Origin: Candidatus Avoscillospira avistercoris
Lineage (GTDB): Bacteria > Bacillota > Clostridia > Oscillospirales > Oscillospiraceae
Assembly (NCBI GenBank): GCA_018716875.1
Contig: DVJJ01000118.1
Coordinates: 1 to 64,000 of the forward strand
Length of the DNA: 64,000 nt
Direction of reading: 5' to 3'
Under the pieces are notes generated by a model. It was given only the letters and a program-made list of their open reading frames with translations, did no database searches and had not been told where the DNA came from. Shown one piece after another: positions 47,579-54,031 of this stretch. Position 1 is the first letter of the stretch. Every line of letters starts with the position of its first letter. The position numbers were made by a program, and so were the translations under genes.

Positions 47579-50291
<2,713 letters not shown>

Positions 50292-51800
50292 TTACGCCTC
50301 CCAACGGGCGGCAAATTCATCGATGGCCTGCCGCAGGCTTTGGGAGACGTCGTCCGGCAGCTTTTTGCTGCGGTCGATGGAGTCCATGGATTCGCTGTGG
50401 ACCTCATGGAGCCAGGGCAGCAGCGCCGTGACAAAGGACTGCATTTTAGCCACGGGAATTTTCTCCAGACCGTCGCAGCGGAGACTCAGCAGCAGCGCCG
50501 TCTGGTCCGACAGCTTGAGGATGCGCTCCTTGGGCTGTTTCAGCAGCTCCGTCATGCGGACGCCGCGGTCCAGAAGCTTCTTGGTGGCGGCGTCCACGTC
50601 GGCGCCGAACTGGGCGAACACGGCCATATCCCGGTATTGAGCCACCTCCAGGCGGAGGCTGCCGGACACGGCTTTCATGGCCGAATGCTGGGCGGCGCGG
50701 CCCACACGGGACACGCTGAGACCCACGTTGACGGCGGGCCGGACGCCGGAGTGGAACAGTTCGCTCTCGAGGAAGATCTGTCCGTCGGTGATGGAAATGA
50801 CGTTGGTGGGGATGTAGGCGGAGATATCGCCGGCCATGGTCTCGATGATGGGCAGGGCGGTCATGGAGCCGCCGCCCAGCTCGGGGCTCAGATGGGCCGC
50901 CCGCTCCAGCAGACGGGAGTGCAGATAGAACACGTCGCCGGGGTAGGCTTCACGGCCCGAGGGGCGGCGCAGCAGCAGGGACATGGTCCGGTAGGCCACG
51001 GCGTGTTTGGAGAGATCGTCGTAGACCACCAGAACGTCCTTGCCCTGATGCATAAAGTATTCCGCCACGGCGCAGGCAGCGTAGGGGGCCAGATATTGCA
51101 TGGCGGCGCTGTCGGCAGCGGTGGACGCCACGACCACACAGTGCTCCAGGGTGCCGCTCTCGGAAAGGGTGGTTACCAGATTGGCAACACTGGCGGCCTT
51201 CTGGCCGATGGCGCAGTAGACGCAGATGACGCCCGTATCCTTCTGGTTGACCATGGCTGACAGGGCGATGGAGGTTTTACCGGTCTGGCGGTCACCGATG
51301 ATCAATTCACGCTGGCCGCGGCCGATGGGGATCATGCTGTCCACGGCCAGAATGCCGGTCTCCATGGGGGTATCCACGGGGGCGCGGTCCATGATGGCCG
51401 GGGCCGGGGACTCCACAGCCCGGGACTCCCGGGTGTGGAGGGGCTGGCCGTCCAGGGGACGGCCGATGGGGTCCACAATGCGGCCCAGCAGCTCCTTGCC
51501 CACGCCGATATCGGCCACGCGGCCGGTGCCCTGGACAGGGGAGCCGGGGCGGACGGATTCGTTGCGGGTCAGCAGGGCGGCGCCCACGCTGTTGAGTCCC
51601 AGGTCCAGGGCGATGCCGTAGACATCGTTTTCAAATTGCAGCAGCTCACCGTATTCGGCACGGCCCAGACCTGCCACCCGGACAATGCCGTCGGCGCAGG
51701 ACTCCACGGTGCCGTAGTCGTAGCTGATCATCTCCGGCTGATAGTCCCGGAGCTTTTCCTTGAGGAAGGTTCCTAATGTGCTGGTATCGAAATTGAGCAT
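50292..51800 (-). CDS. atpA: F1 ATP synthase alpha subunit
   Basis: GRGQRELIIGDRQTGKTSIALSAMVNQ; PSGREAYPGDVFYLHSRLLERAA. Confidence 0.97.
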   Translation of the reverse strand: MLNFDTSTLGTFLKEKLRDYQPEMISYDYGTVESCADGIVRVAGLGRAEYGELLQFENDVYGIALDLGLNSVGAALLTRNESVRPGSPVQGTGRVADIGVGKELLGRIVDPIGRPLDGQPLHTRESRAVESPAPAIMDRAPVDTPMETGILAVDSMIPIGRGQRELIIGDRQTGKTSIALSAMVNQKDTGVICVYCAIGQKAASVANLVTTLSESGTLEHCVVVASTAADSAAMQYLAPYAACAVAEYFMHQGKDVLVVYDDLSKHAVAYRTMSLLLRRPSGREAYPGDVFYLHSRLLERAAHLSPELGGGSMTALPIIETMAGDISAYIPTNVISITDGQIFLESELFHSGVRPAVNVGLSVSRVGRAAQHSAMKAVSGSLRLEVAQYRDMAVFAQFGADVDAATKKLLDRGVRMTELLKQPKERILKLSDQTALLLSLRCDGLEKIPVAKMQSFVTALLPWLHEVHSESMDSIDRSKKLPDDVSQSLRQAIDEFAARWEA

Positions 51801-51812
51801 GGTTCCCTCCCG

Positions 51813-52493
51813 TTACGCCAACTTCTGCTGCATGGCCGAAAGCTGGGTCACATAGCTGAAGTCGTATACCTTGCCGTCCACCAGGGCCGCAAAGCCGCCG
51901 ATGAGGGAGGAGTCGATCTCGGTGGTCAGCTCCAGATGACAGCCCAGGAGCCGCTCCAGACGGTCGATGATGGCGGACAGCTGTTCGGCGTCGCAGGGAG
52001 CGGCCAGCTTCAGGATGCCCTTGCGGGAGCCCTCCTTGGGAGCGGACACCAGGATGTTGCGGCGGGCCTGCTCGTCAAAGCGCAGGACACGGCCGGCCAT
52101 ATCCACGGCCAGATCGGCCAGTTCGCCCTTGACCTCGTCCATGGCGCGCTGCTTCTCAAGGGCGGCTTCGCTGCGGGCCTTGGCCAAAATCTGGTCGGCT
52201 TCGGTCTTGGCCTCGTCAATGACCTGCTGGCCCACGGCCTGAGCCTTTTTGCGGCCGTCGGCAATCATCTGCTCACAGGTGGCCTGGACGTCCACCAGAC
52301 GGGCGTCATAATCGGCCTTGACCTTTTCGGCCTCGGCTTGCAGGCGCTGGGCCTCGGCCATTTCCTTTTGGACCCGCTCAGCGCGGGCGGCCATAAAGGC
52401 CGTTACCGGCTTCCAGATCAAAACGCGGAGCAGGCCGTAAATAATCAGAATATTGACCAGATGGATGGCAATATCAATGGGATGAATGTCCAA
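51813..52493 (-). CDS. atpF: Fo ATP synthase b subunit fused to a delta C-terminal domain
   Basis: N-terminal TM plus long helix (b); last ~70 aa GILKLAAPCDAEQLSAIIDRLERLLGCHLELTTEIDSSLIGGFAALVDGKVYDFSYVTQLSAMQQKLA match the delta C-terminal pattern. Confidence 0.88.
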   Translation of the reverse strand: MDIHPIDIAIHLVNILIIYGLLRVLIWKPVTAFMAARAERVQKEMAEAQRLQAEAEKVKADYDARLVDVQATCEQMIADGRKKAQAVGQQVIDEAKTEADQILAKARSEAALEKQRAMDEVKGELADLAVDMAGRVLRFDEQARRNILVSAPKEGSRKGILKLAAPCDAEQLSAIIDRLERLLGCHLELTTEIDSSLIGGFAALVDGKVYDFSYVTQLSAMQQKLA

Positions 52494-52538: not shown

Positions 52539-52763
52539 TCACATGGTGAACTTGATGATCAGAGCGGTGACAAAGCCGTAGATGGCGCAGGACTCGGTCA
52601 GGGCCAGGCCCAGCAGCAGGGTGGAGCTGATCTTGCCGGAGGCCTCAGGCTGACGGGCGGTGGCGTCGGCGGCCTTGCCGGTGGCGATGCCCATGCCGAG
52701 GCCAGCCAGGGCGCAGGGCAGCAGAGCCAGTGCAACAGCGATAGCAATCAATCCGGTTTCCAT
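52539..52763 (-). CDS. atpE: Fo ATP synthase c subunit
   Basis: GLGMGIATGKAADATARQPEASGKISSTLLLGLALTESCAIYGFVTALII. Confidence 0.96.
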   Translation of the reverse strand: METGLIAIAVALALLPCALAGLGMGIATGKAADATARQPEASGKISSTLLLGLALTESCAIYGFVTALIIKFTM

Positions 52764-52814: not shown

Positions 52815-53735
52815 TTATTCGACGGCTTCGCCGATGAAGGTCAGCGTCAGCGTCAGGAAGATATACGTCTGAATCAGGGGATGGAAGACGTTAAAATAGA
52901 GGCCCAGAACACTGGGGAAGCCGATGGCGGCGTTGCCCAGGGCCATGTACAGCAGTTCCATAACGATCATGCCGCCCAGCATATTGCCGAAGAGACGGCA
53001 GGCCAGGGACACGGGCACCGCCAGGTCGGAGACGATCTTGATGGGGAACACCACCGGCGTGGGCTTGGCCATGGACTTGATCCGGCCCACCAGACCTTTT
53101 TTCTTGAGGCCGAAGTAATTGATCATCACAAAGGTGATAATGGCCATGGCAAAGGTCAAGGTGATGTCGGCGGTGGGGGCGCGGACGCCCAGCAGTTCCA
53201 CCATGGCGGAGCACACCATATAGATGGCCAGGGCGAAGAGATAGGAGGGCAGATGGTCGCCCAGATCTCCCACACTGGTTTTGGTGAATTTGCAGACGGC
53301 TTCCACGCAGATCTCCAGAACATTCTGGATGCCCTTGGGCTGATCGGTCATGCGGGGGATGACGAGAATCCGCACCAGCAGCGCCAGCACCAGCAAGGCG
53401 GCCATAATGACCCAGGTGGTGATGACGGTCTCACTGAGGGAGTAGCCGCCCACATCGTACCGGGTGGCCCAAATGCTGACCTCGAATTCCTCCGACGGTA
53501 CGGAGCCGAAGACCAACTGCAAAATCCGTTCCAGCAGCAGCCAGCCGCCGGCGATGGTCAGTACCGTGGCCCAAAGCTTTTTCCGCTTCATGCGGCCCAG
53601 GGCGGCAGCGTTCTGTTCCAGCTGCGTTTTCCTTCGGAACCAGTCGGCCAGTACGGCGCGGCGCCAGAACCATCCGACCAGGGCCAGCACGAGACCCAAA
53701 GCCAGAAAGCCGTAGGTAACAATGGTTTCCTGCAA
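52815..53735 (-). CDS. atpB: Fo ATP synthase a subunit
   Basis: LACRLFGNMLGGMIVMELLYMAL...FHPLIQTYIFLTLTLTFIGEAVE; TTG start inferred from GAAGGA 9-10 nt upstream. Confidence 0.93.
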   Translation of the reverse strand: MQETIVTYGFLALGLVLALVGWFWRRAVLADWFRRKTQLEQNAAALGRMKRKKLWATVLTIAGGWLLLERILQLVFGSVPSEEFEVSIWATRYDVGGYSLSETVITTWVIMAALLVLALLVRILVIPRMTDQPKGIQNVLEICVEAVCKFTKTSVGDLGDHLPSYLFALAIYMVCSAMVELLGVRAPTADITLTFAMAIITFVMINYFGLKKKGLVGRIKSMAKPTPVVFPIKIVSDLAVPVSLACRLFGNMLGGMIVMELLYMALGNAAIGFPSVLGLYFNVFHPLIQTYIFLTLTLTFIGEAVE

Positions 53736-53740
53736 CGTTC

Positions 53741-54031
53741 TCAATCCTTCTTTCGATTGGTCTCTCTCAACCGATACCGCACGAAGCAGACCACGGCGCC
53801 GACGATCAAGATGGTGGACATAGTGACTGCGCAGGGCAGCAGTTGGGAGGCTTGCAGCAAGGCGCACAGAGCCAAACCGAAAAATGGACAAAAAAATTGC
53901 ACCGCAAAGGGCCAGATCTTCAGCCGTTGGGTGCACAGGGACCTTACGGCATAGATCAGCAGAAACAGCTGTAAAAAGCCAAAGGCCATACCTAATATAA
54001 CACCAATCACGGGCCTCATGCTCCTCTCCAC
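53741..54031 (-). CDS. Small membrane protein, AtpI-like position
   Basis: 96 aa hydrophobic protein immediately upstream of and overlapping atpB. Confidence 0.6.
   Translation of the reverse strand: MERSMRPVIGVILGMAFGFLQLFLLIYAVRSLCTQRLKIWPFAVQFFCPFFGLALCALLQASQLLPCAVTMSTILIVGAVVCFVRYRLRETNRKKD

What the first reader, a model, noticed from the sequence alone, without database searches (positions are those of the whole stretch)
51813..52493. Subunit b fused to only the C-terminal half of delta; delta N-terminal domain absent from the operon
Seen directly: the 226-aa b-type protein ends in a ~70-aa segment (KGILKLAAPCDAEQLSAIIDRLERLLGCHLELTTEIDSSLIGGFAALVDGKVYDFSYVTQL) that fits the delta/OSCP C-terminal pattern (E-L-x-I...LG..V.L....D.SLIGG....V...V.D.S). 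It follows directly after the b helix. Only 12 bp separates atpF from atpA, so there is no room for atpH. Established knowledge: mycobacteria have a b-delta fusion, but with a complete delta and a second b' gene; the delta N-domain normally binds the alpha N-termini and holds the peripheral stalk. Here a single b gene would give two delta-C copies per b2 dimer and no N-domain clamp. Inference: the peripheral stalk attachment is unusual and may be related to the gamma-beta fusion next door.
Basis: partly seen in the sequence, partly recalled or inferred. Interest (0 to 1): 0.68.

Follow-up and report, generated by a model that had tools for sequence, protein, structure and literature searches.

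The report
ATP synthase stalk with halved delta
In these gut bacteria one of the two ATP synthases has lost the half of its delta protein that normally allows only one stalk per motor, and the remaining half is welded to the stalk protein itself, so this may be a natural ATP synthase with more than one stalk.

Summary
[quoted passage not shown] AlphaFold plus Foldseek place that part on delta/OSCP structures. The operon has no atpH and one b. It is not an error: 18 named Oscillospiraceae/Clostridia loci share it, as one clade in alpha and beta trees. Neighbouring lineages carry a free 72-76 aa deltaC gene between atpF and atpA, so b-deltaC probably arose by fusing that gene to atpF. Loss of the delta N-domain is far wider than the window: about half of the delta-bearing genomes sampled in the family, and many other Clostridia, have deltaC alone, deltaC-alpha or b'-deltaC-alpha. 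The window genome does hold a full-length delta, but inside a second, ordinary ATP synthase operon; several NTD-less relatives have no N-domain anywhere. Deleting this N-domain by engineering (Ueno et al. 2025) gave FoF1 with up to three stalks and doubled H+/ATP. Most likely the window enzyme attaches through deltaC and the alpha N-terminus; several stalks are possible but unproven. The neighbouring gamma-beta "fusion" keeps a perfect internal start, so free beta is probably made too.

The parts
51813..52493 (-). [quoted passage not shown]
52083..52469 (-). b (ATP-synt_B) domain of the fusion
   Evidence: PF00430 E 1.6e-23 at these coordinates; E 3.1e-23
51819..52049 (-). delta C-terminal domain of the fusion (OSCP model positions 95-172)
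   Evidence: PF00213 E 2.1e-10; E 5.1e-10 in the whole-genome scan; fold match to delta/OSCP
50292..51800 (-). atpA (alpha, 502 aa) with a conserved N-terminal helix (SLGxFLKEKL..xPEM) kept across the b-deltaC clade
47988..50288 (-). gamma-beta open frame (766 aa): gamma 4-287, beta 310-761
   Evidence: conserved in 17 named loci
49397..49403 (-). Shine-Dalgarno AAGGAGG inside the gamma-beta frame, in front of the beta start
   Evidence: present in 18 of 18 b-deltaC loci against 19 of 1015 other in-frame start-like codons
47988..49388 (-). beta as a separately initiated product (internal ATG, codon 301 of the fused frame)
   Evidence: inferred product, not shown experimentally
47579..47998 (-). 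atpC (epsilon), ATG at 47998, overlapping the end of the gamma-beta frame
52539..52763 (-). atpE (subunit c, 74 aa)
   Evidence: PF00137 E 1.6e-14
52815..53744 (-). atpB (subunit a), probable TTG start at 53744 or 53735; the longer GTG frame overlaps the upstream ORF
   Evidence: PF00119 E 3.4e-38; start candidates
53741..54031 (-). 96-aa ORF with hydrophobic stretches in the usual atpI position; no significant family match

Best explanation
The locus encodes a complete, conserved F-type ATPase/ATP synthase whose stator uses an NTD-less delta. In the ancestry of this clade delta had already been reduced to its C-terminal domain (a free gene of about 72-76 aa between atpF and atpA); that gene was then joined in frame to the end of atpF. 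Shown: the architecture, its conservation, its single clade beside free-deltaC lineages, and the absence of a detectable delta N-domain from several relatives' genomes. Inferred: the b homodimer climbs the side of F1 and its deltaC head docks on the N-terminal helix of alpha, the one of the three alpha contacts that in other enzymes is made by the delta C-domain and b; the two contacts normally made by the N-domain on the threefold axis are missing. Because the N-domain is what restricts F-ATPases to one stalk, up to three b2 stalks, each with an a subunit, could sit on one alpha3beta3 head, raising the ion/ATP ratio and letting the enzyme work at low ion-motive force. The covalent b-deltaC link replaces the b/delta contact and fixes deltaC at two per b2. 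The gamma-beta frame is read from two starts, giving gamma-beta and free beta, so that one gamma-beta plus two beta can be assembled.
For: Architecture. Conservation: 18 named loci, one clade (SH-aLRT 99 in the alpha tree, 100 in the beta tree). Origin: in the alpha tree free-deltaC loci L048 and L068 join the b-deltaC clade (SH-aLRT 95). No N-domain elsewhere: a profile of 27 family N-domains finds the C56 gene in G000 and its counterparts in G053/G199 (E about 1e-42), but nothing at E <= 1 in closed genome G098 or in b-deltaC genomes G097/G166. Purifying selection. The alpha N-terminal helix stays conserved although the NTD is gone. Literature: in PS3 FoF1 one alpha binds the delta C-terminal region and two bind its N-terminal region, and removing the N-domain while fusing deltaC to alpha gives 1-3 stalks and H+/ATP 5.8 versus 3.0 (PMC12229609); in M. 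smegmatis alpha1 contacts the last delta helix and b (PMC8617483). Internal beta start: 18/18 versus 19/1015.
Against: No structure, stoichiometry or activity data exist for any b-deltaC enzyme that I could find. Unlike the engineered deltaC-alpha, here nothing covalently ties deltaC to alpha; Ueno et al. were themselves concerned that free truncated delta would not bind stably. Two deltaC per b2 is awkward, because the canonical b2 tip binds one. A single stalk with one docked and one idle deltaC is equally compatible with the sequence. In the window genome the full delta from the C56 operon could in principle be borrowed, though not in G097/G166 as far as those 87-88% complete assemblies show.
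Confidence: 0.62

Rival explanations
1. Same protein architecture, but one stalk only: a single b-deltaC dimer docks on one alpha, as in an ordinary F-ATPase without the N-domain; the second deltaC is idle or touches a neighbouring subunit. (This competes only with the multi-stalk part of the best explanation.)
For: Simplest reading; the engineered deltaC-alpha enzyme contained many single-stalk particles (average 1.26 per molecule on grids; PMC12229609). The b2 tip normally binds one delta C-domain.
Against: Ueno et al. attribute the limit of one stalk to the N-domain, which is absent here; the repeated different attachments of deltaC (b-deltaC, deltaC-alpha, b'-deltaC-alpha, deltaC-deltaC-alpha) in related bacteria fit poorly with a need for exactly one deltaC.
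Confidence: 0.4
2. The enzyme borrows the full-length delta of the second ATP synthase (C56) for its clamp, and the deltaC tail of b is an accessory.
For: A full-length delta is present in the window genome and in genus mates G053 and G199.
Against: b-deltaC genomes G097 and G166 and the closed free-deltaC genome G098 have no detectable N-domain or full delta; the C56 delta sits in its own operon with its own b and alpha.
Confidence: 0.07
3. It is an N-ATPase, the known second Na+ F-type ATPase that lacks delta and has an extended b.
For: Same idea: no atpH, b extended by a C-terminal domain; hhalign of the b-deltaC family against N-ATPase b aligns both halves (99% probability); one N-ATPase b scores OSCP 98-171 at E 4e-4; present as a second ATPase beside an ordinary one.
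Against: The N-ATPase models fail their cut-offs (b 74 of 224.7 bits, alpha 607 of 750.5, beta 563 of 752); gene order B-E-F-A-G-D-C, not D-C-Q-R-B-E-F-A-G; in the alpha tree N-ATPases are a separate clade (SH-aLRT 100) and the window sits among Clostridia F-ATPases.
Confidence: 0.02
4. Artefact of assembly, or a decaying pseudogene operon.
For: The window genome is a fragmented MAG (174 contigs, 83% complete).
Against: The same architecture occurs in 18 named loci from many assemblies, down to 41% identity, with dN/dS below 1; catalytic and coupling motifs are intact (alpha GDRQTGKT, beta GGAGVGKT and [10 protein letters not shown], c glutamate, a arginine in ACRLFGN).
Confidence: 0.01

Closest known systems
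Engineered PS3 FoF1 with N-domain-deleted delta fused to alpha (Ueno et al. 2025, PMC12229609; PDB 9jc1/9jc2) and its noted natural counterpart in Acidaminococcus fermentans
   Same: Delta lacks its N-domain and only the C-domain (about 75 aa) is kept, with no other delta in the operon. Foldseek matches the window deltaC to 9jc1 chain I (2.2 A over 67 columns).
   Different: There deltaC is fused to alpha, giving three per head by construction; here it is fused to b, giving two per b dimer and no covalent tie to alpha. Natural deltaC-alpha fusions are common in the window's own family, but on other branches of the tree.
N-ATPase AtpF (TIGR03321)
   Same: No delta gene; b extended by a C-terminal domain that aligns with the window's deltaC. 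PMC5706428 states that N-ATPases lack delta, have a longer b, and that this b resembles subunit E of A-type ATPases.
   Different: Different clade, gene order and c/alpha/beta families; the N-ATPase tail is more divergent.
Mycobacterial b-delta (M. smegmatis, PMC8617483)
   Same: b and delta are one polypeptide; the delta C-domain has the same topology.
   Different: The mycobacterial protein has a complete delta plus a duplicated linking domain that hold alpha2 and alpha3, and a separate b'. The window protein has neither N-domain nor b'.
Engineered E. coli b/delta fusion (Gajadeera and Weber 2013, seen only as a reference in PMC4154653)
   Same: b joined to delta in one chain; by its title an E. 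coli enzyme carrying a b/delta fusion protein.
   Different: A laboratory construct; that its delta was complete is my recollection, as the paper is not held.
Chloroflexus aurantiacus ATP synthase (PDB 9itj-9itu)
   Same: 72 b chains in 18 entries and 12 delta chains in 6 entries imply four b and two delta per deposited model, which would fit two stalks (my inference from chain counts, paper not held).
   Different: The delta chain is 157 aa with about 90 residues ahead of the C-domain; b and delta are separate.

Membership tests
F-type ATP synthase (F1Fo) | atpB, E, F, A, G, D, C subunits of F type in one operon | tested here: met
   TIGR00962 686 bits (cut-off 484), TIGR01039 754 (463), TIGR01146 223 (194), TIGR01216 85 (67), TIGR01260 53 (44), TIGR01144 69 (65.5); subunit a by PF00119 132 bits (33.9), though TIGR01131 92 is under its cut-off of 102.6
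F-type ATP synthase (F1Fo) | complete delta subunit (N-domain plus C-domain) | tested here: not met
   Only PF00213 95-172 present; no N-domain in the operon
N-ATPase | scores above the N-ATPase-specific models (TIGR03321, 03324, 03305, 03306, 03322) | tested here: not met
   74/224.7, 607/750.5, 563/752, 90/302, 44/131 bits
N-ATPase | operon order D-C-Q-R-B-E-F-A-G | tested here: not met
   Order is [96-aa ORF]-B-E-F-A-G-D-C
N-ATPase | no delta gene, b with C-terminal extension | tested here: met
N-ATPase | alpha falls in the N-ATPase clade | tested here: not met
   N-ATPase clade SH-aLRT 100 without the window
Mycobacterial-type b-delta | b fused to complete delta with a linking domain, plus a separate b' | tested here: not met
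   226 aa against 445 aa; no N-domain, no b' in the operon
N-domain-deleted delta (multi-stalk type of Ueno et al.) | delta lacks its N-domain | tested here: met
N-domain-deleted delta (multi-stalk type of Ueno et al.) | deltaC fused to the N-terminus of alpha | tested here: not met
   deltaC is fused to b; alpha starts on its own
N-domain-deleted delta (multi-stalk type of Ueno et al.) | more than one b2 stalk and a subunit per enzyme | not testable with these tools
   Needs structure or stoichiometry of purified enzyme

The most novel reading that the evidence does not exclude
[quoted passage not shown] together with its deltaC-alpha and b'-deltaC-alpha relatives it would mean that multi-stalk F-ATPases are common in gut Clostridia.
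Probability: 0.4. Interest if true: 0.87.

Novelty: new variant of a known kind. Interest (0 to 1): 0.62.

Why it matters
The delta N-domain was identified in 2025, by engineering, as the part that restricts an F-ATPase to one stalk; natural counterparts were only suggested, from Acidaminococcus and a few other species. Here a whole clade of gut bacteria, and many of its Clostridia relatives, turn out to lack that domain, with deltaC attached to b, to alpha, to both, or left free. That makes the question of natural multi-stalk ATP synthases, and how fermenting bacteria set their ion/ATP ratio at low driving force, directly testable. The perfectly conserved start inside gamma-beta also suggests how a fused gene can keep a 1:3 subunit ratio.

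Tried and rejected
N-ATPase membership (rejected). Mycobacterial-type fusion (rejected: no N-domain, no b'). Borrowed delta from the second operon (unlikely). Internal start at the b/deltaC junction: the window and its closest relatives have AAGGAGG there but no start codon in place, and it is absent in the others, so no separate deltaC is expected. Internal alpha start in deltaC-alpha fusions: few linkers have a start codon with a good Shine-Dalgarno, unlike gamma-beta, so those look like true fusions. AlphaFold of the gamma-beta frame failed (mean pLDDT 44) and is not used. A viral-contig scan for the gamma-beta protein found nothing. Dibrova 2010 and Gajadeera 2013 are not held, and no Chloroflexus structure paper was found. 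One literature query was malformed and not repeated.

Full report
Observation. On the minus strand the window carries a 96-aa hydrophobic ORF, atpB, atpE, a 226-aa atpF, atpA, a 766-aa gamma-beta frame and atpC. The 226-aa protein matches ATP-synt_B at residues 9-137 (E 3.1e-23) and OSCP/delta at residues 149-225, model positions 95-172 of 172 (E 2.1e-10). AlphaFold2 on a 19-sequence alignment gives helix 5-137 and a beta-alpha-beta-beta-beta-alpha domain at 156-225, the same order of elements that PMC8617483 describes for the C-terminal part of mycobacterial delta. Foldseek returns delta/OSCP chains of many ATP synthases as its best hits, many at 2-3 A over about 70 residues, including the engineered 9jc1. 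The delta N-domain is absent and atpA begins 12 bp downstream with its own ribosome-binding site.

Second delta in the genome. The genome (MAG, 174 contigs, 83% complete) has one other delta, complete, on contig C56 in an ordinary atpB-E-F-H-A operon; its genus mates G053 and G199 also have both. A profile made from 27 N-domains of the family finds only this gene in the window genome (E 1e-42), and finds nothing at E <= 1 in the b-deltaC genomes G097 and G166 (88 and 87% complete) or in the closed genome G098, which has free deltaC only.

Conservation and origin. A scan of genome contigs found 18 named loci with the same b-deltaC gene (Oscillospiraceae MAGs, Candidatus Avoscillospira, Candidatus Ventricola and others; 41-98% identity). 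All 17 that reach far enough also have the gamma-beta frame. dN/dS of the deltaC part is below 1 in every pair tried. In an alpha tree of 130 rows b-deltaC is one clade (SH-aLRT 99); two loci with a free 72-76 aa deltaC between atpF and atpA (L048, L068) join it (SH-aLRT 95), and wider neighbours are free deltaC or deltaC-alpha. A beta tree agrees on the single clade (100) and the neighbourhood, with the exact sister unresolved. The simplest history is b | deltaC | alpha becoming b-deltaC | alpha.

How wide the N-domain loss is. A scan of 201 genomes of the family with PF00213 found delta matches in 111; by my count of that table 57 of these have a match confined to the C-terminal half, and about ten of the 57 also have a full delta. 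Some of the 57 may be fragments at contig ends. Fetched loci show free deltaC (72-76 aa), deltaC-alpha (about 573-630 aa), full delta-alpha (about 660-697 aa), b'-deltaC-alpha (736-812 aa, mostly behind a separate b) and a deltaC-deltaC-alpha. In a class-wide sample, 32 weak delta hits followed up gave mostly deltaC-alpha frames (584-655 aa) or short deltaC genes, in a dozen or so other families. How many times the N-domain was lost is not settled.

Mechanism. From PMC12229609: in PS3 FoF1 one alpha N-terminus contacts the delta C-terminal region and two contact the N-terminal region, which sits on the threefold axis. Removing residues 2-104 of delta and fusing the rest to alpha gave enzymes with one to three stalks, about two a subunits on average, and H+/ATP 5.8 instead of 3.0; the authors conclude that the N-domain sets the stalk number to one, and note a natural deltaC-alpha in Acidaminococcus fermentans. 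In M. smegmatis alpha1 binds the last delta helix, its preceding strand, and b (PMC8617483). The window enzyme keeps that part, fused to b, and keeps a strongly conserved alpha N-terminal helix. I therefore infer attachment by deltaC to the alpha N-terminus, with stalk number no longer limited by the N-domain. Single-stalk and multi-stalk versions cannot be told apart from sequence. Each b2 brings two deltaC; N-ATPases, whose single b also ends in a deltaC-like domain, seem to live with the same arrangement, but PMC12229609 says their function and overall structure remain unknown.

Gamma-beta. In 18 of 18 b-deltaC loci an ATG or TTG at the beta start is preceded by a 6-9 base match to AAGGAGGTGA, against 19 of 1015 other in-frame ATG/GTG/TTG codons of these genes. 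Junctions of b-deltaC and deltaC-alpha show no such pattern. Three gammas cannot fit in one head (established F1 structure), so a mixture of one gamma-beta and two free beta is the likely outcome (inference). The fusion is exclusive to the b-deltaC clade among the loci compared (17 of 17 against 0 of 46); since the clade is one lineage, this is one coincidence and not evidence of a functional link.

Comparison. It is an F-type ATPase by its subunit models, not an N-ATPase (models, gene order and tree all fail), and not the mycobacterial b-delta. It works most like the N-domain-deleted enzymes of Ueno et al., with deltaC on b instead of alpha, and resembles N-ATPase b and, more distantly, subunit E of A-type ATPases (one search lists subunit E chains at E 4e-4; one search lists 4dt0 at 0.77 probability).

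Verdict. Observation confirmed; interpretation partly supported; new variant of a known kind. The wider pattern, natural N-domain loss across Clostridia with several ways of tethering deltaC, is more interesting than the single gene.

Noticed in passing
window 47988-50288 (-), with 49388-49403: Gamma-beta fused frame with a perfectly conserved internal Shine-Dalgarno and start codon for beta; fused gamma-beta plus free beta expected.
   Followed up: yes
L032, L034-L037, L039, L044-L047: b'-deltaC-alpha triple fusions of 736-812 aa, in most loci behind a separate b gene. One polypeptide from membrane anchor to catalytic head, no clear internal start seen, so possibly three b' per enzyme. They group together in the alpha tree with L042.
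   Followed up: partly
L041 (G015:C17:33000-45000): Alpha with two deltaC domains in tandem at its N-terminus (deltaC-deltaC-alpha).
   Followed up: partly
L061 and L062 (G098, closed genome): The whole ATP synthase operon with free 72-aa deltaC is present twice; in the second copy the alpha frame is broken in two.
   Followed up: no
G000 contig C56:3-2925 (L001) and C108:24195-25025: A second, ordinary ATP synthase with full delta in the same genome; its c subunit has a glutamate in the first helix (GIGEGYAAGKA) besides the usual one (AETTGIY), unlike the window's c (GLGMGIATGKA, TESCAIY), so the two enzymes may use different ions.
   Followed up: no
PDB 9itj-9itu (Chloroflexus aurantiacus): Chain counts imply four b and two delta per model, which would fit a natural two-stalk F-ATPase; paper not held.
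   Followed up: partly
window 53741-54031 and 52815-53936 (-): The atpB frame extends upstream over a 96-aa hydrophobic ORF; the real start is probably TTG at 53744 or 53735.
   Followed up: partly
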